64,000 bases of DNA from an uncultured Ectothiorhodospiraceae bacterium (GTDB lineage Bacteria > Pseudomonadota > Gammaproteobacteria > Nevskiales > Oceanococcaceae), in assembly GCA_937141935.1 (NCBI GenBank), contig CAKZQS010000018.1:1-64000 (forward strand), in the 5' to 3' direction. The notes under the pieces are model-generated. The model was not told where the DNA came from, made no database searches, and worked only from the letters and a program-made list of their open reading frames with translations. The position numbers were made by a program, and so were the translations under genes. Every line of letters begins with the position of its first letter. Positions within the stretch are counted from its first letter, which is position 1. This document shows, one piece after another, positions 7,289 through 48,510 of the stretch.

Positions 7289-8166
7289 GCTGGCTCGAGA
7301 AAATCATGCCCTCGCGCATCGGCACGGCCCAGGAGGGCCGGCACAGCGTGCCCGAGGGCCTGTGGGCCAAGTGCCGCAGCTGCAGCGCGATGCTTTACCG
7401 CGCCGAGCTGGAGCGGGCCAGCGAGGTCTGCCCCAAATGCGGCGCGCACCACCCGATCAGCGCCCGACGCCGCGTGGACTTGTTGCTGGACGAGAGCGGC
7501 CGCGAAGAGCTGGCCGAGGGGCTGCGCGCCTCCGACCCGCTGAAGTTTCGCGACCTGAAGAAATACCGCGACCGCCTGACCGCGGCCGAAAAGAGCAGCC
7601 GCGAGAAGGAGGCCCTGCTGGTCTTTCGCGGCAGCATCAGCGGCCAGCCGGTGGTGCTGGCCGTGTTCGAGTTCGGCTTTATCGGCGGCTCGATGGGCAG
7701 CGTGGTGGGCGAGAAGTTCGTGCGCGCCGTGCGCGCGGCCATCGAGGACAACCGCCCCTTCGTCTGCATCAGCGCCTCCGGCGGCGCGCGCATGCAGGAG
7801 GCGCTGTATTCGCTGATGCAGATGGCCAAGGTCAGCGCCGCGCTGGGCCTGCTGGCCCAGGCCGGGCTGCCCTATATCTCGGTGATGACCGATTCGACCA
7901 TGGGCGGCGTCAGCGCCAGCCTGGCCATGCTGGGCGACATTCACATCGCCGAGCCCGGCGCGCTGATCGGCTTTGCCGGCCCGCGGGTCATCGAGCAGAC
8001 CGTGCGCCAGAAGCTGCCGGAGGGTTTCCAGCGCGCCGAGTTCTTGCTGGAGCACGGCCATATCGACATGATCTGCGACCGCCGCGAGCTGCGCGCCACG
8101 CTGGCCCGTTTGCTCGGCATGCTGATGCACCGGCCTGCCGGAGACGCGAGCACCCCGCAGGCGTGA
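7285..8166 (+). CDS. accD: Acetyl-CoA carboxylase carboxyltransferase subunit beta
   Basis: AccD is one half of the carboxyltransferase that makes malonyl-CoA; AccA, its partner, is not in the window. The 293 residues begin with the four-cysteine zinc finger (Cys30, Cys33, Cys49, Cys52) and continue with the crotonase-type fold, including [18 protein letters not shown] and the glycine-rich [13 protein letters not shown]. The start overlaps the trpA stop (ATGA). Its place between trpA and folC is standard in gammaproteobacteria. Confidence 0.97.
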
Positions 8167-9446
8167 GCCCGGGCAGCGTTGCCGACTGGCTGGACTACCA
8201 GCAGCGGCTGCACCCGCAGGGCATCGCGCTGGGCCTGGAGCGCGTCAGCCAGGTCTGGCAACGACTGGCCGCCGAGCGGCCGCCGCTGCCGCGCGTCATC
8301 AGCGTCGCCGGCACCAATGGCAAGGGCAGCTGCGTGCACGCGCTGGCGGCCCTGGCCGCGGCGGCGGGCAAACGCTGCGGGCGCTACACCTCGCCGCACC
8401 TGTACCGCTACAACGAGCGCATCGTGGTCGATGGCCAGCCCATCGACGACGCGGCTCTGTGTGCCGCCTTTGCGGCCGTCGAGCAGGCCCGCGGGGACAT
8501 CGCACTGACCTTCTTCGAGTTCGGCACCCTGGCCGCGCTGTGGCACTTCGCCGGCGCCGGCCTGGACCTGGTGCTGCTGGAGGTCGGCCTGGGGGGGCGG
8601 CTGGATGCCACCAACATCATTGACGCCGACGTCGCGGTGCTGCTGGCCATCGGCCGCGACCACGAGGCCTGGCTGGGCTCGGAGCTCGCCGGCATTGCGG
8701 CGGAAAAGGCCGGCATTACCCGCGCCGGGCGCCCGGCCATCGTGGGCGATGCCGGCGGCGCCGCGCTGTATGCGCCGGCGCTGGCGCGGCGCGGCGTGCA
8801 GGCTACGGTTTGCGGCCAGGATTATCAGCTGCAGGTTGGCGGCGCCGGCCCGGGCCGCCTGGCGGTGGCCATGCAGGGGCCGCACTGCGACGCCGGGCTG
8901 CGCTGGGAGCAGTCGGACACGCTGCTGCCGGCCAATCTGGCCGCGGCGGTGCAGGCCTGGCAGATGCTGGACTGGGGCCCGGCGCCGACTGCCGCATTGG
9001 CGCAGCTCGCCGTGCCCGGCCGCTGTGAGCGCCGGCGCATCGCCGAGGGCGAGCTGATACTGGACGTGGCCCATAACGGCCCGGCCGCGCAGCGGCTGGC
9101 CGACTGGCTCGCCGCGCAGCCGCCGGCGGAGCAGGCGCTGGTGATCGGCGTGCTGGCGGACAAGTCGGCGGCGGACATCGTGGCGCCGTTGGCGGCGCAG
9201 ATGGCCCGCATCGAGGCCTGCGACCTGCCGCCACCGCGCGGCGCCGCGGCCAAGACGCTGCTGGCGGCCGTGCCCGTCCATTGCCAGCCGCCCGGCGCTG
9301 CGGCGGCGGGGCCGGTGCTGCGGGCGCACGCCGGCCCGGCGGCAGCGCTGGCGGCGGCCCGCGAGTGGGCCGCCACCGTCGCGGGGCCGGCGCGCATTAT
9401 CATTTGCGGCTCGTTTCAGACGCTGAGTGGGGCGGATCTTGACTGA
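8163..9446 (+). CDS. folC: Bifunctional dihydrofolate synthase/folylpolyglutamate synthase
   Basis: FolC joins dihydropteroate to glutamate and extends the polyglutamate tail of folates. GTG 8163, overlapping the accD stop by four bases, gives 427 residues. The P-loop GTNGKGS is at 50-56, followed by the [15 protein letters not shown] segment; [11 protein letters not shown] and the C-terminal domain motif [13 protein letters not shown] are clear. The frame is open upstream through accD, but only the part from 8163 is homologous to FolC. The 3' end overlaps the SPOR gene. Confidence 0.95.
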
Positions 9447-9963
9447 GGGGCGCAAGCAGAGGCTGGTCGGCAGTGCGGTATTCGCCCTGCTGGCGCTGAT
9501 ACTGCTGCCGTGGATGTTCTCCGACCCGGTGGACCCACGCAGCACGATCCGCAGCCGTTTCGCGGCGGAGCAGGCGCCGTTGCGGCCGGCCGTCGCGGCG
9601 CAGCCCGAGGCCACGGCCGCGCCGCGCACGAGCCCGGCCATCGCGGCCGCGCGGCCCACGCCGACGGTCGAAGCCCGTGCCGCCGTCGACCGCGCATCGC
9701 CCAGCCCGGCGCCCGTGGCGCCCGCGCCCAGCCGCGACTGGCGGCTGCAGCTGGCCAGCTATGTCAGCGAGGCCCCGGCGCGCGCCTTCATGGCAAAGCT
9801 GCGCAAGGCCGGGCACAGCCCGCACCTGGAAACCGACCGCAGCGGCGCGCGCACCGTGTACCGCGTGCGGCTGCTGTTTCGCGCCCCGCAGGACGAGGCG
9901 CAGGCGCTGCAGGCCGCGCTGAACCGCGAATACCGCATCCAGTCGGTGCTCAGCGCCCGATGA
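9427..9963 (+). CDS. dedD: SPOR-domain cell-division protein, DedD-like
   Basis: SPOR proteins bind denuded septal peptidoglycan. After a short cytoplasmic start ([10 protein letters not shown]) comes one membrane span (AVFALLALILLPWMF), an Ala/Pro-rich periplasmic linker and a C-terminal SPOR domain (WRLQLASYVSEAPARAFMAKLRKAG, then RVRLLFRAPQDEAQAL). GTG 9427 gives 178 residues; TTG 9439 would give [11 protein letters not shown], closer to the family start, and a shorter overlap with folC. The folC-dedD-cvpA-purF order matches E. coli and Pseudomonas. Confidence 0.88.
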   Translation: MGRILTEGRKQRLVGSAVFALLALILLPWMFSDPVDPRSTIRSRFAAEQAPLRPAVAAQPEATAAPRTSPAIAAARPTPTVEARAAVDRASPSPAPVAPAPSRDWRLQLASYVSEAPARAFMAKLRKAGHSPHLETDRSGARTVYRVRLLFRAPQDEAQALQAALNREYRIQSVLSAR

Positions 9964-10011
9964 TTCGGGTGCCGCGCAGGCAGTATCGGGCCGGGCAGGG
10001 CGGCGCTGCGG

Positions 10012-10017
10012 TAAAAT
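10012..10017 (+). promoter_or_regulatory. cvpA: Candidate -10 element before cvpA
   Basis: TAAAAT, five of six matches to TATAAT, stands 29 bases before the cvpA start in the only gap (82 bases) between folC/dedD and cvpA-purF. No good -35 hexamer is seen at the expected distance, so this is a weak call. Confidence 0.35.
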
Positions 10018-10045
10018 GTCAGGTCGATGACTATCGTGTGGCGCC

Positions 10046-10621
10046 GTGATCGAGGGATTGGTCTGGGCTGACTACCTGCTCGCCGGGGTGCTGCTGATCT
10101 CCCTGTTGATCGGCCTGTTCCGCGGCTTCGTCAAGGAAGTCTTCTCGCTGGCCTCGTGGATTTTTGCCGTGTGGGCCGCGTTGCAGCTGGGCCCGGCTGT
10201 GGCCGAGCGCTGGCTGGCCAGCCTGGAGTCGCCCACCATGCGCATGGGCGCCGCCTATGCGGGCGTGTTCCTGGTGGTGCTGATCTGTGGCGCGATCCTG
10301 GCGCACATGGTCACGCTGCTGGTGAACCGCACCCACCTGCAGGGCACCGACCGCAGCCTGGGCCTGGTGTTTGGCCTGCTGCGCGGCGCGGTGATTGCGA
10401 CCGGCCTGATCCTGCTGGCGCGCATCACGCCGCTGCCGCAGGAATCCTGGTGGCGCGAATCGGCGCTGATTCCGCATTTCGAACGCCTGGCCGACTGGAC
10501 GGCCCGGCAATTGCCTGAGGGCTGGGTTCCCGAGGCCCCCCCGGCGATAGACGCCGCCGGCATGCTCGATGGCCGCCCGGCCAACCCCGCTCCCGCCCCT
10601 CCCGAACCGCAGGAATCCTGA
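10046..10621 (+). CDS. cvpA: CvpA family inner-membrane protein
   Basis: CvpA is a small membrane protein first known from colicin V export and linked to envelope homeostasis; its biochemical activity is unsettled. The 191-residue product begins at GTG 10046 and has four hydrophobic spans, starting [29 protein letters not shown], which is the family signature. A Pro/Glu-rich cytoplasmic tail follows. purF begins two bases after the stop, the same pairing as in E. coli, so co-transcription is very likely. Confidence 0.93.
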
Positions 10622-10623
10622 CA

Positions 10624-12138
10624 ATGTGTGGCATCGTCGGCATGGTCGCCCACAGCGCCGTGAACCAATCCATCTACGACGCGCTGACGGTGCTGCAGCA
10701 CCGCGGCCAGGATGCCGCGGGCATCACCACCTGGGACGCGGGCGAGCTCTTCCTGCGCAAGGACAACGGCTTGGTCCGCGACGTCTTCACCAAGGAGCAC
10801 ATGCTGCGGCTGAAGGGCTCGGCCGGCATCGGCCATGTGCGCTACCCCACGGCGGGCTGCACCTCCTCGGCCGAGGCCCAGCCGCTGTATGTCAATTCGC
10901 CTTACGGCATCGCGCTGGCGCATAACGGCAACCTGACCAATGCTGCGGCGCTGCGCCAGCAGCTGTTTGTGGAGGACCGCCGGCACCTGAACACCAGCTC
11001 GGATTCCGAGGTGCTGCTGAACGTGCTGGCCACCGAGCTGGCCGACGTGGGCGGGCTGACGGTGGAAGAAGACGCCGTGTTCGAGGCCGTGCGCCGCCTG
11101 GGCGAGCGCTGCCGCGGCGCCTACGCCTGCGTGGCGCTGATCAACGGCTTTGGCGTGGTGGCCTTCCGCGACCCCATGGGCATCCGCCCGGTGGTCTACG
11201 GCCGCCGTGACAGCGAGCAGGGCCCGGAATACATGCTGGCCTCGGAGTCGGTGGCGCTGGACACGGCCGGCTTCGAGCTGATCGGTGATATCGCCCCTGG
11301 CGAGGCGGTGGCCATCCGCTTCGACGGCCGCCTGAGCCGCCGCCAGTGCATCACCCCCGGGCCCTACCGCCCCTGCCTGTTCGAGCATGTGTACCTGGCG
11401 CGGCCGGACTCGGTCATGGACGACATTTACGTCTACAAGGCGCGGCTGCGCATGGGCTCGCAGCTGGCCCGCAAGATCGAGCGCGAATGGGCCGACCACG
11501 ACATCGACGTGGTGATTCCGATTCCGGATACCAGCCGCACCGCGGCCATGCAGCTGGCCAGCGACCTGGGCGTGAAGTACCGCGAGGGCTTCATCAAGAA
11601 CCGCTACATCGGTCGCACCTTCATCATGCCGGGCCAGGCGCTGCGGCGGAAATCGGTGCGCCAGAAGCTCAACCCCATCGACATCGAGTTCGCCGGCAAG
11701 AACGTGCTGCTGGTGGATGATTCCATCGTGCGTGGCACCACCTCGCAGGAGATCATCCAGATGGCGCGCGACGCCGGCGCCCGGCGCGTGTATTTCGCCT
11801 CGGCGGCGCCGCCGGTGCGCTACCCCAATGTCTACGGCATCGACATGCCCTCGGCCGCCGAGCTGGTGGCCAACGGCCGCAGCGTGGACGAGATCGCGCA
11901 GGTGCTGGGCGCCGATCGCCTGATCTACCAGGATCTGGATGCGCTGAAGGACGCCGTGCGCCATAACCAGGCGCATGTGGAGGACTTCGAGGACTCGGTG
12001 TTCTCCGGCCATTACGTCACGGCCGACATCGACCGCGACTACCTGAGCCAGCTGGAGCTGTTCCGCAGCGACGCGGCGCGCACCGAGGGCGATTCGCCGG
12101 CCAAGCAGGTGGGCCTGCACAACGTCGGGACCGGCTGA
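10624..12138 (+). CDS. purF: Amidophosphoribosyltransferase
   Basis: PurF makes phosphoribosylamine from PRPP and glutamine, the first step of purine synthesis. The mature N-terminus would be Cys2 (MCGIVGMV), the glutaminase nucleophile, and the glutaminase domain contains [11 protein letters not shown] and GHVRYPTAG. The PRPP-binding loop [13 protein letters not shown] is at about residues 362-374. The 504 residues are of normal length and there is no propeptide. The last base of the stop is the first base of the metZ start, so the two genes are coupled. Confidence 0.97.
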
Positions 12139-17694: not shown

Positions 17695-19218
17695 TCAGGC
17701 GCTGCGGGCGCTGCTGCTTTCCGCCGGTTGGGCGCGCTCGGGCAGGCCCAGCGCCAGGATGAAGACGCCCTCCTGCGCCAGCACGCGGCTGTGCAGCCAG
17801 GTCATCTGCTCGGCGCTGGCATCCACGCAGCGCACCGGCCCGCTGTGCTCGTGCGTGCTGCGACGGCCCGAAATCAGGTCCACGAAGATGTGCGCCGCCT
17901 CGCGCGATTGGCGCGGGTCGTCGAGCAGGTCCAGAAAGTTCATGCGCCGCAGTTCAGATTCGCTGTAGCCGAGCAGGTGCCCGGTAAAGCGGTTCACCCG
18001 CATGATGCGCCCCTCGCCGGAGAGCATCAGGATCGCGATCGGCGCCGTCGACAGGATTTTTTCGTTGAGGTTCTGCGAGCGGCGCAGCTCGGCGACGTTT
18101 TCCGCCAGGGCCTTGTTGCGCCGGCTGACGGTCAGCTCCAGCGCCTCCAGCTGGTCGGCGAGGCTGACGGCCAGGCCTTCGAGCAGGTCGATTTCGGTGG
18201 GCCAGCGGCGGTGGCGGTGCTCGTGCCCGATCAGCGCCCGCGCCGGGTCATAGGCGCGGTCGGCCAGCAGTGGCAGCGCCCGGGCCAGCCGGCGCAACTG
18301 GTTCATGGGCCGGTTGAGAATCACATAACCCAGCACCAGCGTTACGGCCAGGGCCGTCAGGCTGGAGAGCAGCGTTTGCCGCAGCTCGGCCGCCGCATGG
18401 GCCAACCGGTCGCGCTCGTCCTCGACGATGACCACATAGCCCTCGCCAACGCCGCCAAAGCGCGACCAGGGCGTGCTGCTGGCGCGAAAGCCCGTGTCGG
18501 GCGGGGGCAGGGCGCGGCCCTGCTGCAGCGGCGCCAAGCCGTGTTCGGCGATCAGCCGTTGCAGGCGCTCGCGGTTGCGCGGCGCGTCGCTCAGGGCGGC
18601 CAGGCGCAGGCCGGGGCTGTCGGCGCGGCGGCCGTAGAGCGCGATGTCGGCGCCGGTCAGCGTGCTGAACTCCAGCACGACGTCGGCCATGCGGGTGGCC
18701 AGCACCATCAGGCGCTGCCGGCCCTGCGGCCCCAGGCTGGGCACCAGCGCGTATTGCGCGCAATAGGTCTGGCAGATCAGGAAGGTATCCGGCCGCTCCT
18801 CGCGCAGCGCGACGCGTACGCGCTCCTCGAGCTCGGCCGGGGGGCGCTCGGCCACATCCGAGCGGCCGGTCAGCAGCCAGCTGCCATCGGAATCCAGCAG
18901 GCCCAGCACCAGCAGGTCCAGCTCCAGCTGCAGCACCGCCCATTGCTGCTGCAGGGCCTCGCTTTGATCCAGCGCGTCCACCAGGTTGGGCACGATGGTG
19001 CCGATACGCTGCAGCCGGGTCGCCGAGCTTTCCAGCAGCCGTTCCAGCGCGCGCAGGTGCTGGGCGCGCTCGCTGGCGCGGGCGGCCTCCAGGGCCTGCT
19101 CGCGCTCATAGATCTGAAAGCTCAGCAGGCCGCCGTTGACCACCAGCAGCGCCAGCCCCAGCAGGGCCAGCATCTTCCATTTCAGGGAGACCCGGGAGCG
19201 GGGCGCCGTCGCCGTCAT
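17695..19218 (-). CDS. Transmembrane sensor with periplasmic domain and PAS domain, no output domain
   Basis: The 507 residues are laid out as a membrane span (15-33), a periplasmic sensing domain (about 34-283) with a Cys-Gln-Thr-Tyr-Cys motif (Cys149, Cys153), a second span (284-301), a helical linker (about 342-385) and a PAS domain (about 385-490; LSTAPIAILMLSGEGRIMRVN, HLLGYSESELRRMNF). The protein then stops: no histidine kinase, GGDEF, EAL or methyl-accepting part is present. It is the third gene of a minus-strand operon, four bases behind the barrel gene. It most likely signals through another protein; the GGDEF-EAL gene at 20954 is the obvious candidate. Confidence 0.8.
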   Translation of the reverse strand: MTATAPRSRVSLKWKMLALLGLALLVVNGGLLSFQIYEREQALEAARASERAQHLRALERLLESSATRLQRIGTIVPNLVDALDQSEALQQQWAVLQLELDLLVLGLLDSDGSWLLTGRSDVAERPPAELEERVRVALREERPDTFLICQTYCAQYALVPSLGPQGRQRLMVLATRMADVVLEFSTLTGADIALYGRRADSPGLRLAALSDAPRNRERLQRLIAEHGLAPLQQGRALPPPDTGFRASSTPWSRFGGVGEGYVVIVEDERDRLAHAAAELRQTLLSSLTALAVTLVLGYVILNRPMNQLRRLARALPLLADRAYDPARALIGHEHRHRRWPTEIDLLEGLAVSLADQLEALELTVSRRNKALAENVAELRRSQNLNEKILSTAPIAILMLSGEGRIMRVNRFTGHLLGYSESELRRMNFLDLLDDPRQSREAAHIFVDLISGRRSTHEHSGPVRCVDASAEQMTWLHSRVLAQEGVFILALGLPERAQPAESSSARSA

Positions 19219-19222
19219 GCGC

Positions 19223-20434
19223 CTAGAAGCGCCAGGCCGCCATCAGCGTCAGCGCCGACCAGTGGCGCTCGGCCGCGCCGCTGGCGTAGTCGGGGTTGTC
19301 CAGCGGGTTTACCCACAGCGCGCCGTCAACGATATGCACCTCGGCCCACACGCCCCACTGCGGGCGCGGGCTGTATTGCGCGCCCAGGGTGAAGTCGCGA
19401 CCGAAGAAGTAATGCCGCGGCAGGCCGGTTTCGCGGCTTTGGCGCTGGCCGCCGCGGTCCTGCAACTCGCGCTGGCGCTCGTCGTAGCGCGCCAGCAGCG
19501 ACCAGCGCTCGCTGAGCCGGTACACGCTTTGCAGGTAGAAGCCGACCGAATCCTGGTCGATCTGCGAACTGACGGCTGGGTGGCTGATCAGGTCGTCGAG
19601 GCGGATGCGCCGGCGCACGATTTCGGCCGTCCACGAGATGCGCTCCCGGTTGTGCTCGGCCGACAAAAACAGCTGGTCCAGGCGGAAGTCGCCGGCCATG
19701 TCGAAGACCTGTTCATCCTGCGGGCTGTAACGCAGGCCCGCGGTGCCCAGCGTCAGCGCGATGCGCCAGCGGCCGCCGCCGATGTCGTCGCCCAGGCGCA
19801 GCGTGGCGCCATCCTCGATGCGAAAGCGCCCGCGCGAGGGGTTGCGCAGGATCGAGATCGCCGCCGTGTCTTCCAGGCGCGAATCGACCAGCGCCTGCAG
19901 CTGCCAGTTCAGCGCGTGCGCGCCGGTGTAGAAGTCGCCATAGACCGAGGCGCCCCAGCTGGAGAAATAGCCAAAGGCGCGGGCGCCGTCGTTGTCCAGG
20001 TAGACCGACTGCGGCAGCAGCACGCTGGGCCGCGAGAAGATCGCGTCGCGCGAATCGTTGTAAAAGCCAAAGGGCAGCTTGAGCTTGCCGCCGCGCAAAC
20101 CCACCCGCTTGCGCGGGCCCTGGAACACGACGAAGTCGGCCAGCAGGTAGTCCAGCGTCAGGTCTTCCTCGGTCACCTCGCCCTGTTGCACCGAGGCCAC
20201 TTGCGCCGCCAGCAGGCCGCGGGGCGTTGGCCGCCAGGAGGCATTGAGGCCGATCTCGCGAAAATCGAAGCTGCCGCCGCCGTTCTGCGATTCGCCGTTG
20301 AGGTTATTGCCCTCGCTCAGCGTCCAGCCCTGCGCGGCAAAGCCATGCAGCTGCCATTCGCCGGCCAGGGCCGGCGCGGCCAGCAGGGCGCCGAGCAGCG
20401 CGGCGGCCAGCATGGACAGGGGTCTAGCGGACAT
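19223..20434 (-). CDS. Outer-membrane beta-barrel (porin-like) protein
   Basis: The ATG at 20434 gives a signal peptide (MSARPLSMLAAALLGALLAAPALA) and 403 residues ending in Phe (LTLMAAWRF), the usual C-terminal signal of outer-membrane barrels. The body alternates polar and hydrophobic residues, with GGKLKLPFGFYNDSRDAIFSRPSVLLPQSVY resembling the first strands of porin-like families. The start overlaps the 3' end of the PstS-like gene by 11 bases, so the two are coupled. The open frame continues upstream to 20794 but that part is the shadow of the neighbour. The substrate is unknown. Confidence 0.8.
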   Translation of the reverse strand: MSARPLSMLAAALLGALLAAPALAGEWQLHGFAAQGWTLSEGNNLNGESQNGGGSFDFREIGLNASWRPTPRGLLAAQVASVQQGEVTEEDLTLDYLLADFVVFQGPRKRVGLRGGKLKLPFGFYNDSRDAIFSRPSVLLPQSVYLDNDGARAFGYFSSWGASVYGDFYTGAHALNWQLQALVDSRLEDTAAISILRNPSRGRFRIEDGATLRLGDDIGGGRWRIALTLGTAGLRYSPQDEQVFDMAGDFRLDQLFLSAEHNRERISWTAEIVRRRIRLDDLISHPAVSSQIDQDSVGFYLQSVYRLSERWSLLARYDERQRELQDRGGQRQSRETGLPRHYFFGRDFTLGAQYSPRPQWGVWAEVHIVDGALWVNPLDNPDYASGAAERHWSALTLMAAWRF

Positions 20435-20876
20435 CGAGAATCCTTGCGGCGTGGGCTGCGGCCTCGGGCGCCGAGTCATCCGGAACATAGCCGATAGCGC
20501 CCGGCGTGGTGGCGACCTCCCGGCGCATCGCTTCGATGGACGGCACCCGGGTCGGGCGCTGGCCGGTGCCCGAATACACGAGGCGATCCCAGGATTGCTC
20601 CAGTTGGTAGGGGTAGGTGCGCAGCTGGGTGCGGCAGAACTGCGCATGCAGCGGGTGGTCCGCCTCCAGCACGAATACCCGCACCGGCTGGCCATCCGGC
20701 CAGATGCGGACGCGCATGCCGAAGATGCCGCGCAGCAGCGAGCGGCTGATGTCGTCCTGCGCCACGTCGGGGTGCACGATGACCTTCGCGGCATCCTCTT
20801 CGGCGAGCGCGGGCGCCGCCCACAGGGGCACGACCGCCAGTGCGGCAGCGAGCAGCCATGAGCTCCAGCGCTTCAT
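20424..20876 (-). CDS. Small periplasmic PstS-like substrate-binding-domain protein
   Basis: ATG 20876 gives a signal peptide (MKRWSSWLLAAALAVVPLWAAPALA) and 150 residues. The mature part has features of phosphate-type binding proteins: ISRSLLRGIFGMRVRIWPDG, QFCRTQLR, WDRLVYSGTGQRP and the C-terminal TTPGAIGYV. At about 125 mature residues it is only about half of a PstS, and there are no pst transporter genes nearby, so transport is unlikely. It heads the operon with the barrel and PAS sensor, which suggests a sensing or ligand-presenting role (inference). Confidence 0.75.
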   Translation of the reverse strand: MKRWSSWLLAAALAVVPLWAAPALAEEDAAKVIVHPDVAQDDISRSLLRGIFGMRVRIWPDGQPVRVFVLEADHPLHAQFCRTQLRTYPYQLEQSWDRLVYSGTGQRPTRVPSIEAMRREVATTPGAIGYVPDDSAPEAAAHAARILDVR

Positions 20877-20953
20877 CCCCCAAAGGTCTCCTCTGCATGG
20901 CCTCGCCGCGCAGGGCCTGCCGCCTGTGGCTGCGGCTCGGCTATGCTGCGGAC

Positions 20954-22684
20954 ATGGACGCAGGTCTGGATGATACGCGAGCGCAGGCCGCACTTCGACG
21001 GGCAGCGCTGGCGCACTACGCGGCGCGGGGTACGCGCGACGCGGTGCTGGTGCTCGACGAGCGGGATCAGGTGCGCTATGCCAATCGCCGCGCACGCCGC
21101 ATGGCCGGTGACGACGGGCTGGCGCTGGAAGGCCGTGAACTCGCCGCCATCGTGCCGGCCGGGGTGGACGGCCAGCGCCTGCTGGATGCGGTGTCGCTGG
21201 CGCGCGGGCAGGGCCGCAGCAGCCGTTTGCGCGTGGCCCGCGAGGGTCGTCGCGAGCTGCGCATTGCCGCGCACCCGATTCATGAGCCCGGCGCCCGCGG
21301 GGTGTTGCTGGTGGTGCGCACGCGGCGCGTGGCGCGTGTGGAAGGCGTGCCCACGGCCGCCGACCTCGACCCGCTGACCGGCCTGGTCAACCGCCGCGGC
21401 TTCGAGCGGGCGCTGGCGCGCCTGCTGCGCGACGTGGAGGAGCGCGGCGGCGAGCATGCGCTGTGCTACCTGGATCTGGACGACTTCAAGATCGTCAACG
21501 ACAGCTGCGGTCACGCGGCCGGCGATGCGCTGCTGCGGCAGCTGCCCGGCCTGCTGGACCCGGTTGTGCGCGAGGGCGACGTGATCGCGCGGCTGGGCGG
21601 CGACGAGTTTGGCGTGCTGCTGCGCAATTGCAGCCTGGAGAACGCAGGCCGTGTGGCCGAGGCGCTGCGCGATGCGGTGCGCGGCTTCCGCTTTGCCTGG
21701 CAGACGCGCACCTTCAGCATCGGCGTGGGCATAGGCGTCGTGGCCATCACCCAGGGCGCCGAGGATGCCGACACTCTGCTGCGCGATGCCGACACCGCCT
21801 GCTACACGGCCAAGGAGACCGGCCGCAACATCGTGCATGTGGCGCCGCCACGGCAGCTGGCGGTGGTGCGCAACCGCGGCGAGCGCCGCTGGGCCCAGCG
21901 GCTGCGCAGCGCGCTGGACGAGGACGAGGGCTTTGAGCTGCATTACCAGAGCCTGCATCGCCTGGGCCCCGGGCCCAGCACCGAAGGCGAGGCCCGCCAC
22001 CACGAGCTGCTGCTGCGGCTGCGTGATGCCGAGGGGCAGCCCATCCTGCCCGGCGCCTTTTTGTCCACGGCGGCGCGCCATGGGCTGATGCCGCAGCTCG
22101 ACCAGTGGGTGATCCGCCATGGGCTGACGCAGGTCGCACGGCTGCTGCGCGGGCCCGCGGCGGGGCATGTGTTCTCGCTGAACATCTCCGGTCGCTCGCT
22201 GGGCGAGGCCGATACGCTGGCCACCATCCGCGAGGTGCTGGTCGAGCAGGCCCTGGACCCGGCCGCAATCGCCTTCGAGGTGCAGGAGACCGCGGCCAGC
22301 CTGAACCTGGGCGCCGCGCTGCATTTCATGCGCGAGCTCAAGGCCCTGGGTTGCCGGCTGGTGCTGGATGATTTCGGCTCCGGCGTGTCCAGTTTTTCCT
22401 ACCTGAAGAACCTGCCGGTGGATCTGATCAAGATCGACGGCAGCATCGTGCAGGACCTGCTGGGCAGTCGCGTGGACGAGGCCATCGTGCGCGCCTGCAA
22501 CGATGTGGCCCATTGCCTGGGCATTGCCACGGTGGCCGAGTCGGTTGAAAGCGACGCCCAGCTCGCGCTGCTGCGCGACATGGGGCTGAACTACGCGCAG
22601 GGTTTTGTTTACGACCGGCCGCGGCCGCTGGCGGACTTCGCCGCGGCGCCGGAAGCGCCGCTGCTGTTGCAGACCTCGGCCTAG
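20954..22684 (+). CDS. PAS-GGDEF-EAL protein (cyclic-di-GMP turnover)
   Basis: ATG 20954 gives 576 residues. An N-terminal PAS-like domain (VLVLDERDQVRYANRRARRM) precedes a GGDEF domain with the intact motif at 215-219 (RLGGDEFG) and an RxxD inhibitory site at 206-209, so cyclase activity with product inhibition is plausible. In the EAL domain the motif reads Glu351-Leu-Leu; LNISG, DDFGSG, IKIDGSIV and AESVES are kept, so phosphodiesterase activity is possible. There is no membrane span. The gene is divergent from the PstS-like/barrel/PAS operon, and its start is 77 bases from that operon's first start codon. Confidence 0.9.
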   Translation: MDAGLDDTRAQAALRRAALAHYAARGTRDAVLVLDERDQVRYANRRARRMAGDDGLALEGRELAAIVPAGVDGQRLLDAVSLARGQGRSSRLRVAREGRRELRIAAHPIHEPGARGVLLVVRTRRVARVEGVPTAADLDPLTGLVNRRGFERALARLLRDVEERGGEHALCYLDLDDFKIVNDSCGHAAGDALLRQLPGLLDPVVREGDVIARLGGDEFGVLLRNCSLENAGRVAEALRDAVRGFRFAWQTRTFSIGVGIGVVAITQGAEDADTLLRDADTACYTAKETGRNIVHVAPPRQLAVVRNRGERRWAQRLRSALDEDEGFELHYQSLHRLGPGPSTEGEARHHELLLRLRDAEGQPILPGAFLSTAARHGLMPQLDQWVIRHGLTQVARLLRGPAAGHVFSLNISGRSLGEADTLATIREVLVEQALDPAAIAFEVQETAASLNLGAALHFMRELKALGCRLVLDDFGSGVSSFSYLKNLPVDLIKIDGSIVQDLLGSRVDEAIVRACNDVAHCLGIATVAESVESDAQLALLRDMGLNYAQGFVYDRPRPLADFAAAPEAPLLLQTSA

Positions 22685-23632: not shown

Positions 23633-24643
23633 TTAGTTGACGATGGCCGGCCCGCTGCGAGTGCGCTCCAGGCTGCGGCCGCTGCGGCTGGGCAGGCCCT
23701 GCTGCAGCTCCAGCGTGTATTCGCCGGGGCGCAGGTCGCCGATGTAGATCAGGTTCGGGTTCTGGCCCGACTTCCAGGTGCCCTGCACGGTGCGGCCGCG
23801 CGGGTCGGTGAGGCGGATGAAGGGCTGTGCGCTGCGTGGGTCGATCGGGTCGGCGAACAGGATCGCCAGCCCGTGGGCGGCCACCGAGCTGTCCAGCGGG
23901 CCGACGAAGCGGACGGTCAGCTCGTCGCCGCCCTGCGTGTCCACCCACCAGGCGCGCAGCGCCGAAGTCGAACGCCGCGGCGCGGCGGTCGGCTCGGCAG
24001 TGGGCTCGGCCTTGCGGGTCGGCGCGGCCGTGGGCTCGCTGCGCGCCGTGGCCGCGGGCTTGGGCTGCGCGCTGGGTTTGGCTGTCGGTTCGGCCGTGGG
24101 CTCCGGCGTCGGTTCCGGGGTGGGCTCCGGAGTCGGTTCCGGAGTCGGCTCGGGTGTGGGCTCGGCGGTGGGCCGCGGCGTGTCCGCGTCCGCGTCGCTC
24201 TGCGCGGCCGCGGCGGCCGATTCGGCCAGCGCATCGGCGTATTCGGGGTCGGCCTCGTCATCCGGCGCGGCGTCGCCGGCGGCCATGTCGGTGTCGGCGC
24301 CGGGATCGGTATTGGGATCGGTATCGGCATCCGGGTCGGCGGCCGGATCAGCATCCGCGTCAGAGCCCGCACTGGCGGGAGGCGGCAGGCTCGAGCTGGG
24401 GGCCAGAGCCGTGCGGGGCAATGCCCGCACGGTGTCCATGGCCTCGATGCCCCGGACGGAGTTCGACGAATACAGATCCTGCAAGCTGGTTTCGGTATCC
24501 GAACCCTTTTGCGTATCCGCATCGCCAAGGACCAGCCCGAGTCCGAAGTAGGTAGCCGCCGCGACCAGCGCGATGGCGACCGCCGTCAGAATCAGGCCGC
24601 TCCAGTTCGTCGGGACAACAGTATCTCCCCCAGCAGCTGCCAT
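23633..24643 (-). CDS. Membrane-anchored protein with Pro-Glu-Thr repeats and an Ig-like C-terminal domain
   Basis: The 336-residue protein has one membrane span (15-38), an Asp/Ala-rich stretch, a tract of repeated Glu-Pro-Thr-Pro units and a C-terminal domain of about 95 residues beginning ALRAWWVD. That domain ([44 protein letters not shown]) looks like the first macroglobulin/Ig-like domain of bacterial alpha-2-macroglobulins, standing alone. The tract probably spans the periplasm as a stiff spacer. The function is not known; no partner gene is obvious. The domain assignment is from pattern only. Confidence 0.7.
24099..24177 (-). repeat. 12-bp tandem repeat encoding Glu-Pro-Thr-Pro
   Basis: On the minus strand the coding sequence repeats a 12-base unit encoding Thr-Pro-Glu-Pro or Thr-Ala-Glu-Pro about seven times. 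Third positions vary, so the repeat is under protein-level selection or is old. Confidence 0.75.
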
Positions 24644-45467: not shown

Positions 45468-46175
45468 ATGACCCACATGTACGGCCGACATATCCTGATC
45501 GTCGAAGACGAAGAGCCGATCCGCAACCTGGTCCGCTTCGCGCTGGAGCGCGAGGACTATCAGGTGCTGGAGGCCGGCACGGCCCAGGAGGGGCGGCTGG
45601 CCATCGCCGACGTGCGCCCCGACCTGATCCTGATGGACTGGATGCTGCCCGGCGTCAGCGGGCTCGATTTTGCCCGCGAGCTCAAGTCCAGCGAGGCCTT
45701 CTGCGATATCCCGATCATCATGCTCACGGCGCGTGGTGAGGAGGAGGACAAGGTCCGCGGCCTGTACGCCGGCTGCGACGACTACATGACCAAGCCTTTC
45801 TCGGCCGCCGAGCTGGTGGCCCGTATCCATGCGGTGCTGCGGCGCAGCCACGTGGGCGGCCTGGATGCGCCGATTGAGGTCGGGGACATCTCGGTCGACG
45901 TCGCCGCGCAGCGGGTCAGCATCAAGGGCACGCCGCTGTCGCTGGGGCCCACCGAATATCGCCTGCTGCATTTTTTCTGCACCCACCCCGAGCGGGCCTA
46001 CACCCGCGAGCAGGTGCTGGACCGGGTCTGGGGGCAGAACGTCTACGTCGAGGAGCGCACGGTCGACGTGCATATCCGCCGGCTGCGCAAGGCGCTGGCG
46101 CCCTTTGGCTGCGATGCGCTGATCCAGACGGTGCGCGGCACCGGCTACCGCTTCTCGACCCGCCCGGCGGCCTGA
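45468..46175 (+). CDS. phoB: Phosphate regulon response regulator PhoB
   Basis: An OmpR/PhoB-type regulator of 235 residues. The receiver has ILIVEDEEPIRNLV, the phosphoacceptor Asp57 (LILMDWMLPG), Thr in MLTARGEEEDK and Lys in YMTKPFSAAEL; the winged-helix DNA-binding part ends RVWGQNVYVEERTVDVHIRRLRKAL and GTGYRFS. The receiver-effector pair is nearest to PhoB. ATG 45477 (MYGRHILIVEDE) would fit the family length better than ATG 45468. The usual partner gene phoR does not follow. Confidence 0.92.
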   Translation: MTHMYGRHILIVEDEEPIRNLVRFALEREDYQVLEAGTAQEGRLAIADVRPDLILMDWMLPGVSGLDFARELKSSEAFCDIPIIMLTARGEEEDKVRGLYAGCDDYMTKPFSAAELVARIHAVLRRSHVGGLDAPIEVGDISVDVAAQRVSIKGTPLSLGPTEYRLLHFFCTHPERAYTREQVLDRVWGQNVYVEERTVDVHIRRLRKALAPFGCDALIQTVRGTGYRFSTRPAA

Positions 46176-46187
46176 TCGGGCAGGGCC

Positions 46188-46210
46188 GGCGCGGCTGCGG
46201 CCGCGCCTTT
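46188..46210 (+). terminator. Terminator hairpin after phoB
   Basis: GGCGCGG (46188-46194) and CCGCGCC (46201-46207) form a 7-bp stem with a six-base loop followed by TTT. It separates phoB from mrcB; a TACACT hexamer at 46246-46251 may start a new transcript. Confidence 0.55.
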
Positions 46211-46257
46211 GGTCACGGCCGTCTTCGGCGCTGTCTGCGGGCGGCTACACTGCGCCC

Positions 46258-48510
46258 GTGAAACGCCGAATCCTGATGCTGGCGCTGCTGCTGGGCGCGC
46301 TGGCCTTCCTCGCCTTTACCGTGCTGATCTACCACAGCGACCGGACTGTGCGGCAGCGCTTTTCCTCGGCCCGCTGGGTGGCGCCGGCGCAAGTCTATGC
46401 CGCGCCTCAGGAGCTGTACTCCGGCGCACCGCTGTCGGCCGACGCGCTGGAGGCGGCGCTGCTGCGGCTGGGCTATCGCGAGCGCGAGGCGGACCCCGAG
46501 GGGCCCGGCGAGTATCAGCGCAGCGGCCAGGGCCTGCACCTGTGGCGGCGCGCCTTTGTGCTGGGCGACCAGCGCGAGCCGGAGCTGCAGTTGCAGACCC
46601 GCCACGCCGGTGGCGCACTAAGCACGCTGCGGGCCCACGGCGGCGGCAGCCTGGCGCTGGAGCGGCTGGAGCCCGAGCGCATCGGCTCCTTGTATCCCGC
46701 ACAGGGCGAAGACCGTGAGCTGCTGCAGCTGGAGGACTGGCCGCCGGGGCTGCTCGAGGGCCTGCTGGCCGTGGAGGACCAGCGCTTCTACCGCCACCCC
46801 GGCGTCGACCCGCAGGGCCTGGCGCGCGCCTTTGTGCGCAACATGCGGGCGGGGCGCGTCGTCGAGGGCGGGTCCACGCTGACCCAGCAGCTGGTCAAGA
46901 ACCTGTTCCTGAGCAACGAGCGCAGCCTGCCACGCAAGGCCCGCGAGGCCGTGATGGCGTTGCTGCTGGAATGGCATTTCGACAAGCAGGCGATACTCGA
47001 GGCCTACGGCAACGAGGTCTACCTGGGCCAGGACGGGCAGCGCGCGATCCACGGCTTTGGTCTGGGCAGCCGCTTCTGGTTCTCCAAGCCCCTGGCCGAA
47101 CTCAACACGGCCGAGCTGGCGCTGCTGGTGGGCATGGTCAAGGGCCCCTCGGCCTTCAACCCGGTGCGCAACCCCGAATCCGCCACCGCGCGGCGCAATG
47201 TGGTGCTGCGTGTCTGGCACGAGCAGGGTCTGATCGACTCGCAGCAGCTCGCCGAGGCGGAGGCCGCCGAGCTGGGCATCGTGCAGGGCGGCCGCCAGCG
47301 GCATACGACGACCGCCTTTCTCGATCTGGTGCGGCGCGAGCTGCGTCGCGACTTTCCCGAACAGGCGTTGACCTACGACGGGCTGCAGATCCACACCCAC
47401 CTCGACCCCCAGCTCCAGGCCCTGGCCGAGGAGGCGGTGCGCGAGACGGTGCCCGCGCTGCGCGAGCGCGGCGGCGAGGGGCTGCAGGCGGCGCTGGTGG
47501 CCACCGGTGTGGCGGATGGGCGCATCAAGGCCCTGGTGGGCTCGGCCGAGCCGGGCCGGGCCGGCTTCAACCACGCCCTGGATGCGCGCCGGCAGATCGG
47601 CTCGCTGGTGAAGCCGGCGGTGTACTACACCGCGCTGAGCCGGCCGCGCGACTACACGCTGGTCACCTCGCTGGTGGACAGCCCCTTCGAGATCACCCTG
47701 CCCAATGGCGATCGCTGGGCGCCGCGCAACTTCAGCGGCGAGTCGCATGGCGAGGTGCCGCTGTATCAGGCGCTGGCCAAGTCCTACAACCAGTCCACCG
47801 CGCGCTTGGCGCTGGAACTGGGCATCCCCGCCGTGGTGCGCACGCTGCGCGACATGGGCGTGCAGGGCGCGATTCCGGCCGTGCCGGCGCTCGCGCTGGG
47901 CGCGCTGGAGCTGTCGCCACTCGAAGTCGCCGGCGTGTACACCACGCTGGCCGCCGGCGGCTACCCCAGCCGTCTGCGGGCGATTGCCGGCGTCTACGAG
48001 GCCGACGGCGAGGCCCTGTTGCGCGACGAGCTGCGGCTGCAGCGCGGGCTGGATCGCAAGGTGGCGCACCTGGTGCACTGGGCGCTGGCGCGCACGCTGA
48101 TCGAAGGCACCGCGCGCAGCTCGCGGCAATATCTCAGCCCCACGCGGATGCTCGCCGGCAAGACCGGCACCTCCGATGGCCAGCGCGACGCCTGGTTCGC
48201 CGGTTATGGCGGCAGCCTGCAGGCCACCGTCTGGGTGGGGCAGGGGGACAACCGCAAGATGGATCTGACGGGTGCCAGCGGCGCCATGCCGATCTGGGCC
48301 CGCTTCATGGAGGCGGCGCAGGCCGAAGCCATCGCCTTGCGCAGCCCGCCGGGCGTGGTGCTGCAAACGGTCGACCCCGACAGCGGCCTGCCCGCCGACA
48401 AGGGCTGCCGTACACTGTTGCCGGTGCCCTTTGTCGAGGGCAGCGTCCCCGAGCGCCGTGCGCCCTGTGCCCGCACCCGCAGCCGCTCCTGGTTTGACGG
48501 ATTGTTCTGA
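46258..48510 (+). CDS. mrcB: Penicillin-binding protein 1B (bifunctional peptidoglycan synthase)
   Basis: The 750-residue protein (GTG start) has a membrane anchor at 4-25, the UB2H-like region, the glycosyltransferase domain (VEDQRFYRHPGVDP with the catalytic Glu, then GGSTLTQQLVKNLFL, EVYLGQDG) and the transpeptidase with SxxK in IGSLVKPAVYY, SxN in SYNQST and KTG in AGKTGTSDG. The length and the UB2H part favour PBP1B over 1A. The lipoprotein gene begins on the last base of the stop; it could be an activator such as LpoB in role, but is not LpoB by sequence. Confidence 0.95.
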   Translation: MKRRILMLALLLGALAFLAFTVLIYHSDRTVRQRFSSARWVAPAQVYAAPQELYSGAPLSADALEAALLRLGYREREADPEGPGEYQRSGQGLHLWRRAFVLGDQREPELQLQTRHAGGALSTLRAHGGGSLALERLEPERIGSLYPAQGEDRELLQLEDWPPGLLEGLLAVEDQRFYRHPGVDPQGLARAFVRNMRAGRVVEGGSTLTQQLVKNLFLSNERSLPRKAREAVMALLLEWHFDKQAILEAYGNEVYLGQDGQRAIHGFGLGSRFWFSKPLAELNTAELALLVGMVKGPSAFNPVRNPESATARRNVVLRVWHEQGLIDSQQLAEAEAAELGIVQGGRQRHTTTAFLDLVRRELRRDFPEQALTYDGLQIHTHLDPQLQALAEEAVRETVPALRERGGEGLQAALVATGVADGRIKALVGSAEPGRAGFNHALDARRQIGSLVKPAVYYTALSRPRDYTLVTSLVDSPFEITLPNGDRWAPRNFSGESHGEVPLYQALAKSYNQSTARLALELGIPAVVRTLRDMGVQGAIPAVPALALGALELSPLEVAGVYTTLAAGGYPSRLRAIAGVYEADGEALLRDELRLQRGLDRKVAHLVHWALARTLIEGTARSSRQYLSPTRMLAGKTGTSDGQRDAWFAGYGGSLQATVWVGQGDNRKMDLTGASGAMPIWARFMEAAQAEAIALRSPPGVVLQTVDPDSGLPADKGCRTLLPVPFVEGSVPERRAPCARTRSRSWFDGLF

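What the first reader, a model, noticed from the sequence alone, without database searches (positions are those of the whole stretch)
17695..22684. A possible split signalling cassette: periplasmic binding protein, barrel, sensor and separate c-di-GMP enzyme
A coupled minus-strand operon encodes a half-size PstS-like protein, an outer-membrane barrel and a two-span PAS sensor with no output domain. Directly divergent is a soluble PAS-GGDEF-EAL protein with no sensor span. Together they make one complete path from outer membrane to c-di-GMP, with the sensor and output on different chains. I know of no described system with exactly this set.
Basis: inference. Interest (0 to 1): 0.65.

Follow-up and report, generated by a model that had tools for sequence, protein, structure and literature searches.

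The report
Output-less receptor with separate c-di-GMP enzyme
A widespread bacterial envelope sensor that normally carries its own signal-making enzyme has here lost it and sits beside a separate enzyme from another lineage, and a second bacterial family keeps the same arrangement, so a sensor may have been rewired from one protein to two.

Summary
A minus-strand operon encodes a half-size PstS-like protein (about one lobe, predicted), a predicted 16-strand porin-like barrel, and a two-span dCache_3-PAS protein with no output domain. A PAS-GGDEF-EAL enzyme without a span starts 77 nt away, divergently. The surroundings change its meaning. Half-PBP, barrel and dCache_3 receptor form a widespread cassette that I did not find described in the held literature. 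The receptor normally carries its output in cis: 63 of 68 named loci with a complete receptor ORF have GGDEF-EAL. In the window's order it is usually a hybrid histidine kinase (14 of 16 genomes with the receptor), 12 of 14 with a REC-EAL gene nearby. The output-less form with a divergent PAS-GGDEF-EAL was found in two genomes: the window and a groundwater MAG of another family in the order, which shares just these four genes, with different flanks. The output-less chains keep the PAS of the fused receptors, as conserved as in them. Their enzymes belong to a different lineage (AU test p=0.0055), so the output was recruited in trans, not split off. Best reading: the receptor's PAS regulates the neighbouring enzyme by contact, as IsmP does ImcA. 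No interaction has been shown.

The parts
20424..20876 (-). half-size PstS-like periplasmic protein, 150 aa, hydrophobic N-terminus that looks like a signal peptide
   Evidence: PBP_like_2 below cut-off; profile and predicted fold match about one lobe of PstS
19223..20434 (-). outer-membrane barrel, 403 aa, 16 predicted strands
   Evidence: homologous barrel in most cassettes fetched
17695..19218 (-). receptor chain without output: TM - dCache_3 - TM - linker/coiled coil - PAS - stop, 507 aa
   Evidence: the coiled coil is inferred by eye
17749..18063 (-). PAS domain of the receptor chain (about aa 386-490), homologous to the PAS region of fused dCache_3-GGDEF-EAL receptors
20954..22684 (+). 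PAS-GGDEF-EAL enzyme without membrane span, 576 aa from ATG 20954; GGDEF with RxxD motif, EAL motif residues present
20877..20953 (.). 77-nt divergent intergenic region between the two start codons; no sigma-70 consensus found

Best explanation
This is a rewired member of a widespread envelope cassette (half-PBP, porin-like barrel, dCache_3 receptor) whose recognised outputs are c-di-GMP enzymes, or kinases mostly with an EAL gene nearby. An ancestor of the window's lineage and of one other lineage lost the receptor's in-chain output right after the PAS and came to use a divergently encoded PAS-GGDEF-EAL enzyme of another lineage. Proposed mechanism: a solute enters through the barrel and meets the half-PBP; the half-PBP, loaded or empty, acts on the periplasmic dCache_3 domain; the change passes through the second span and the coiled coil to the PAS; the PAS binds the neighbouring enzyme (most likely its GGDEF) and shifts its synthase/phosphodiesterase balance. 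Shown by computation: gene set, folds, homology, a four-gene block kept in two families, retained PAS, separate origin of the enzyme. Inferred: that the two chains touch, that the enzyme is active, the direction of the effect, the order of signal flow, and that the half-PBP binds a ligand.
For: The same three genes with the output in cis: of 68 named loci with a complete receptor ORF, 63 carry GGDEF-EAL, 4 a kinase, 1 (L079) no output. In the class sample all 29 fetched loci other than the window's have GGDEF or GGDEF-EAL in cis; of the 9 places not fetched then, 6 (5 loci) also do, 1 runs off its contig and 2 are matches in other proteins without the receptor front half. One further relative ends in an HD_5 domain. 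In the order 14 of 16 have HisKA-HATPase-REC, 12 of these 14 with REC-EAL genes in the stretch. So c-di-GMP is the usual end point, and this locus supplies it through the neighbour. L079 has the same output-less receptor and divergent GGDEF-EAL; of 58 window genes against 16 on its contig only these four match as orthologues, with different flanks. Receptor PAS: among ORFs of the fetched loci, the 76 hits other than the window and L079 copies are all dCache_3 receptors with cis GGDEF or GGDEF-EAL. Its conservation relative to the periplasmic part equals that in fused receptors (54% against mean 53% for 271 pairs of similar divergence), so it appears to be under selection without a cis output. 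The two enzymes are sisters (100/99) and grouping them with 22 fused receptors is rejected (p-AU 0.0055). Precedent: the CHASE4-PAS part of IsmP alone inhibits the cyclase ImcA, by a proposed PAS-GGDEF contact (PMC10904736, passages read).
Against: No physical or functional link was tested; complexes cannot be predicted with these tools. Only two genomes have it, so the pairing rests on what looks like one ancestral event kept twice. The congener G001 lacks the receptor, so the block is in 1 of 4 genomes of the family and 2 of 85 of the order. L079's enzyme has a much longer N-terminus (PAS and GAF domains), and the window enzyme's PAS finds nothing but itself at E<0.01 among the fetched loci, L079 included, so a PAS-PAS contact is not supported; PAS-GGDEF contact remains possible. 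The window genome has nine other places similar to the enzyme, so another GGDEF/EAL protein could be the partner. The PAS search was against a set rich in cassettes; in whole genomes the receptor's PAS also weakly matches other PAS proteins (best 3.5e-7), and L079's PAS hits one kinase receptor too. In the careful enzyme tree the fused group itself has only 79/55 support. The R..SSGT loop of 1twy is aligned to non-matching residues in the half-PBP, so ligand binding is uncertain.
Confidence: 0.58

Rival explanations
1. Plain gene fission: one dCache_3-PAS-GGDEF-EAL receptor broke in two and the enzyme half was inverted.
For: The receptor chain ends just where the GGDEF linker starts in fused receptors, and the order of domains fits.
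Against: Both enzymes sit in a clade with 28 other PAS-GGDEF-EAL proteins of the order (100, quick tree); a clade with the fused receptors is rejected, p-AU 0.0055.
Confidence: 0.07
2. The output-less receptor works with a histidine kinase or other partner encoded elsewhere, and the neighbouring enzyme is only co-located or co-regulated.
For: 14 of 16 receptors in the order are kinases; the own genome has 50 places matching parts of a relative's hybrid kinase, the window receptor included, among them a kinase next to an ORF with REC- and GGDEF-EAL-like parts on contig C3.
Against: The chain lacks HisKA and carries a PAS closest to that of the cyclase-type receptors; it branches outside a group of 13 kinase receptors (99, quick tree), though two other kinase receptors (L043, L120) also lie outside that group; the enzyme gene is kept beside it in two families with different flanks.
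Confidence: 0.17
3. The receptor is a relict: output lost, remaining PAS drifting or acting as a passive dominant-negative, without signalling.
For: Rare arrangement; the congener has no copy.
Against: PAS and linker are as constrained as in fused receptors; intact ORFs in two families; both chains end in the same way (GLPE/GLPD then a short tail).
Confidence: 0.12
4. The cassette is a phosphate-uptake or phosphate-sensing unit (PstS plus OprP-like porin).
For: Half-PBP is closest to PstS; the barrel's Foldseek list includes OprP, ninth, at TM 0.56.
Against: One lobe only; the SSGT loop of 1twy is not matched in the half-PBP profile (its role in phosphate binding is recalled); OmpT and OmpC/F score as well as OprP; no transporter subunit recognised among the immediate neighbours that were scanned.
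Confidence: 0.06

Closest known systems
IsmP-ImcA of Pseudomonas aeruginosa (PMC10904736; passages read)
   Same: A transmembrane protein's sensor plus PAS part (CHASE4-PAS) is enough to control a diguanylate cyclase on another chain; the PAS is needed for the interaction.
   Different: IsmP still carries EAL and a degenerate GGDEF; ImcA is a six-span membrane protein; no half-PBP or barrel is mentioned in the passages seen; sensor is CHASE4, not dCache_3.
YfiBNR (TpbB) of P. aeruginosa (PMC4655355, PMC4887326: abstract starts in a search listing)
   Same: Outer membrane, periplasmic and inner-membrane parts together control c-di-GMP.
   Different: YfiB is a lipoprotein, not a 16-strand barrel; YfiR is not a PBP lobe (recalled); the cyclase is on the inner-membrane chain (recalled).
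NspS-MbaA of Vibrio cholerae (PMC5646818, PMC8079147: abstract starts)
   Same: A periplasmic binding protein works with a membrane receptor to set c-di-GMP (partly recalled).
   Different: NspS binds norspermidine and is full size (size recalled); no barrel (recalled); output in cis on MbaA (recalled).
H-NOX with partner cyclases such as SwH-NOX/SwDGC (review PMC8846402, passages read)
   Same: Sensor and c-di-GMP enzyme on separate chains, controlled through a partner protein.
   Different: Haem-based NO sensor; no envelope parts (recalled).
Fused dCache_3-GGDEF-EAL cassette (e.g. Nitrosomonas, Nitrosospira, Halomonadaceae loci)
   Same: Same half-PBP, barrel and receptor front half, in the same order.
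   Different: Output on the same chain, from another GGDEF-EAL lineage.

Membership tests
half-PBP / barrel / dCache_3 receptor cassette (defined here) | three adjacent same-strand genes: half-PBP, barrel, dCache_3 receptor | tested here: met
half-PBP / barrel / dCache_3 receptor cassette (defined here) | receptor carries a kinase or c-di-GMP output in cis | tested here: not met
   ORF ends after PAS; the 92 nt to the next, convergent gene leave no room for an output domain
half-PBP / barrel / dCache_3 receptor cassette (defined here) | receptor front half homologous over periplasmic domain, linker and PAS | tested here: met
two-component system | HisKA/HATPase in the sensor, REC in the output | tested here: not met
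PstS phosphate-binding protein | two lobes with ligand cleft | tested here: not met
   150 aa, about one lobe in the model
PstS phosphate-binding protein | SGT-type phosphate-binding loop | tested here: not met
   profile alignment to 1twy; the loop's function is recalled
IsmP-ImcA type trans regulation | sensor-PAS chain binds and regulates the enzyme | not testable with these tools
   no complex prediction or bench work
GGDEF-EAL enzyme | GGDEF motif, RxxD site, EAL catalytic motifs | tested here: met
   GGDEF with REGD, ELLLR, NIS, DDFGSG, IKID, ESVE; activity not tested; roles of the motifs recalled; one pattern sought (ExT) was not matched
YfiBNR | YfiR and YfiB homologues | tested here: not met
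   no such Pfam or NCBIfam hit for the half-PBP or barrel

The most novel reading that the evidence does not exclude
A transmembrane c-di-GMP receptor switched from cis to trans signalling in evolution: it dropped its own GGDEF-EAL, kept its PAS as a docking and control surface, and took over an unrelated PAS-GGDEF-EAL enzyme with no phosphorelay. The wider half-PBP/porin/dCache_3 cassette, common in ammonia oxidisers, is an undescribed class of outer-membrane-to-c-di-GMP sensing whose front end has been plugged into at least five outputs (GGDEF-EAL, GGDEF, HD domain of HD-GYP type, kinase with REC-EAL, trans PAS-GGDEF-EAL).
Probability: 0.42. Interest if true: 0.72.

Novelty: new variant of a known kind. 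Interest (0 to 1): 0.56.

Why it matters
How c-di-GMP enzymes, of which a cell may have dozens, are matched to particular sensors is a long-standing question. Here one conserved sensor front end is joined to different outputs in different lineages, including a natural change from an in-chain enzyme to a separate one. Comparing the fused and the output-less receptors would show directly which PAS surface carries specificity. The wider cassette is frequent in ammonia-oxidising bacteria (43 of the 80 kept record titles name a Nitroso- taxon); three literature searches aimed at them found no description of it.

Tried and rejected
Gene fission was my first idea after seeing the fused receptors; rejected it. 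A sensor derived from the kinase receptors of the same order was the next idea; the PAS hits and the quick receptor tree (the careful search did not finish) speak against it, but the tree is unresolved inside the non-kinase side. A PAS-PAS contact between receptor and enzyme: the two PAS domains show no useful similarity (best E 0.056, to L079's enzyme) and the enzyme's PAS is poorly conserved, so I do not claim it. Phosphate sensing was considered and not supported. Promoter and terminator consensus in the divergent region: none. NCBIfam gave no name for half-PBP or barrel. Profile of the receptor against the PDB: no hit; profile of the barrel: no useful hit. G354 (L203/L244), a shorter receptor, looked like a second kind of split but is a truncated GGDEF followed by a separate EAL ORF, so I left it out.

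Limits of counts. One search used one peptide pattern and kept 80 of 206 relatives. Of those 80, 12 were not counted as complete receptors: 7 had no receptor ORF found, 5 were cut by contig ends. Domain calls in cassettes come from profiles I built from small sets of sequences, without a PAS profile: Pfam found a PAS in 2 of 4 fused receptors scanned (L098, L094 yes; L150, L078 no), while 61 of the 63 fused named receptors have over 100 residues between front half and GGDEF and the region aligns. In one search two duplicate rows were removed; four long-branch rows were dropped and 22 of 64 fused rows used. Background enzymes for the trees were mostly the enzyme's own best hits in the order, which favours finding close kin there, though not the test against the fused group; 98 of 106 receptors after removing near copies. 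Searches trained the gene caller with one of 12 genes out of frame by one base; fixed. The caller's start for the enzyme (21044) is later than mine (20954). L119 and L206 have broken receptor ORFs and were counted by their longest ORF.

Not found in print rests on searches of an open-access library only.
Full report
What is there. The window carries four coupled genes. On the minus strand: a half-size PstS-like protein (20424-20876), a barrel (19223-20434) and a dCache_3-PAS protein (17695-19218); divergently, a PAS-GGDEF-EAL enzyme (20954-22684). Pfam supports dCache_3 and PAS in the sensor and PAS, GGDEF and EAL in the enzyme; PBP_like_2 in the small protein is below its cut-off. With a 73-row alignment the small protein's profile hits PstS structures and its model (pLDDT 91) covers only part of PstS (best matches TM 0.61-0.64 by its own length, 0.36-0.39 by theirs). 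The barrel has 16 predicted strands (pLDDT 91) and matches OmpT, OmpC/F and OprP. The sensor has two hydrophobic spans, the enzyme none.

The wider cassette. A search of the genome collection (84,980 species by its description) with the small protein's alignment gave 206 relatives, of which 80 were kept. Among these, 68 have a complete receptor ORF: 63 are front half plus GGDEF-EAL in one chain, 61 of them with a PAS-sized stretch between, 4 are kinases, 1 has no output (L079). By record title 43 of the 80 are Nitroso- taxa (Nitrosomonas, Nitrosospira, Nitrosovibrio, Nitrosomonadales and the like); others include Halomonadaceae, Chromatiaceae, Thioalkalivibrio and Methylocaldum. In the window's order, 16 of 85 genomes have the receptor: 14 are HisKA-HATPase-REC kinases (Hpt also found in 5 of the 6 of them scanned) and 2 are output-less. 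Twelve of the 14 kinase cassettes have REC-EAL genes in the stretch; G005 and G075 do not. In a class sample 35 of 369 genomes have a match, 39 places in all. The 29 places fetched first, other than the window's, all carry GGDEF or GGDEF-EAL in cis; of the other nine, six (five loci) do too, one runs off its contig and two are matches in other proteins without the receptor front half. In a phylum sample, at a stricter threshold, 12 of 398 match; the one examined there ends in an HD_5 domain. The recognised outputs are therefore c-di-GMP enzymes, or kinases mostly with EAL genes nearby.

The output-less form. L079 (a groundwater gammaproteobacterial MAG, apparently the same contig as G065:C60; the group codes put it in the window's order but another family) has half-PBP, barrel, a 515-aa dCache_3-PAS protein and a divergent 1124-aa protein with PAS, GAF, GGDEF and EAL domains. 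Of 58 window genes and 16 genes on that contig, only these four pair up as orthologues (46%, 48%, 57% and 57% identity); a fifth hit is a GGDEF cross-match. The flanks differ: ubiE, SCP2 and ABC1 genes in L079, an alpha/beta hydrolase and an SDR gene in the window. The congener G001 has only a half-PBP and barrel, like a second, unlinked pair in the window's own genome, with a kinase gene convergent to both pairs.

Where the parts come from. The receptor's PAS is closest to that of the fused receptors: among ORFs of the fetched loci, leaving out the window and L079 copies, all 76 hits are dCache_3 receptors with cis GGDEF or GGDEF-EAL; L079's PAS also hits one kinase receptor. That set is rich in cassettes; in whole genomes other PAS proteins match too, more weakly. 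Aligned, both output-less chains stop just after the last PAS strand, where fused receptors read on into the GGDEF linker. The two receptors are sisters (98) and lie apart from 13 kinase receptors (99), in a quick tree; two more kinase receptors fall outside that group. For the periplasmic part they are 37% identical, for the PAS 54%; fused receptors with similar periplasmic divergence average 53% in the PAS (271 pairs). The PAS is thus as constrained as when it has an output attached. The enzymes are sisters (100/99) within a clade of PAS-GGDEF-EAL proteins of the order (100, quick tree); in eight of these scanned Pfam names no membrane sensor domain. Placing them with the fused receptors is rejected (p-AU 0.0055), although the fused group itself has only 79/55 support in that tree. 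So the receptor lost its output and the enzyme came from elsewhere.

How it probably works. In P. aeruginosa the CHASE4-PAS part of IsmP alone inhibits the cyclase ImcA, by a proposed PAS-GGDEF contact (PMC10904736, passages read). Our receptor chain has exactly that shape: periplasmic sensor, spans, PAS, end. The simplest mechanism is direct control of the neighbouring enzyme by this PAS. The enzyme has GGDEF, RxxD and EAL motifs and could be bifunctional. What enters through the barrel and what the half-PBP does are unknown; the residues aligned to the SSGT loop of PstS 1twy do not match it, so phosphate is not the favoured signal. Ten places in the genome, the enzyme included, resemble it; with some 3,200 genes (extrapolated from 58 genes per 64 kb) a chance neighbour on either side has a probability near 0.6%, my estimate.

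Known or new. In ten literature searches I found no description of the cassette, but the library is open-access only. Sensor and cyclase on separate chains are known (IsmP-ImcA; H-NOX partners, PMC8846402, passages); envelope-spanning control is known (YfiBNR, abstract starts). New, as far as I could see, are this set of parts and the change of one receptor family from cis to trans output. I rate it a new variant of a known kind. The functional link itself is not shown.

Noticed in passing
L031 (G000:C14, 93800-105874), genes 7875-9532 and 9662-11536: The window's genome has a second half-PBP and barrel pair, with a convergent 624-aa histidine kinase whose sensor part is not recognised as the dCache_3 receptor family; the congener G001 has a similar pair (L040).
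   Followed up: partly
L257, 1429-3261: A cassette from outside the class whose dCache_3 receptor ends in an HD_5 domain with an HD-GYP-like sequence: yet another c-di-GMP type of output on the same front end.
   Followed up: yes
L044-L050, L052-L054, L056, L057, L059, L060, L063: A second, wider group in the order: half-PBP-like gene beside a secreted-looking protein of about 320-370 aa (called in most), with a divergent histidine kinase and a REC protein that looks NtrC-like by eye.
   Followed up: partly
L058, L061, L064, L066: Half-PBP-like gene followed by a two-span GGDEF protein (L061: HAMP-PAS-GGDEF), beside a larger ORF: another c-di-GMP pairing of this small protein family.
   Followed up: partly
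L065, 5694-12232: Three half-PBP-like genes close together in one genome (G057:C11) between secreted-looking proteins, with no GGDEF or EAL gene detected in the part of the stretch shown.
   Followed up: no
L134, 2539-6236; L260, 8641-10956: Tandem duplications of half-PBP and barrel; L134 has no receptor gene found in the stretch, L260 has a receptor with GGDEF-EAL next to the second pair.
   Followed up: no
L077-L156, Nitrosomonadaceae loci: The fused cassette is strikingly frequent in ammonia-oxidising bacteria (43 of 80 kept titles name a Nitroso- taxon).
   Followed up: partly
45468-48510: A response regulator and a large membrane kinase-like gene that look like PhoB and PhoR by eye (not scanned); about 25 kb from the PstS-like gene.
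   Followed up: no
23633-24643: A 336-aa protein with an N-terminal hydrophobic stretch, a long proline/threonine/glutamate-rich repeat (Pfam PT repeat) and a C-terminal part of unknown kind.
   Followed up: no
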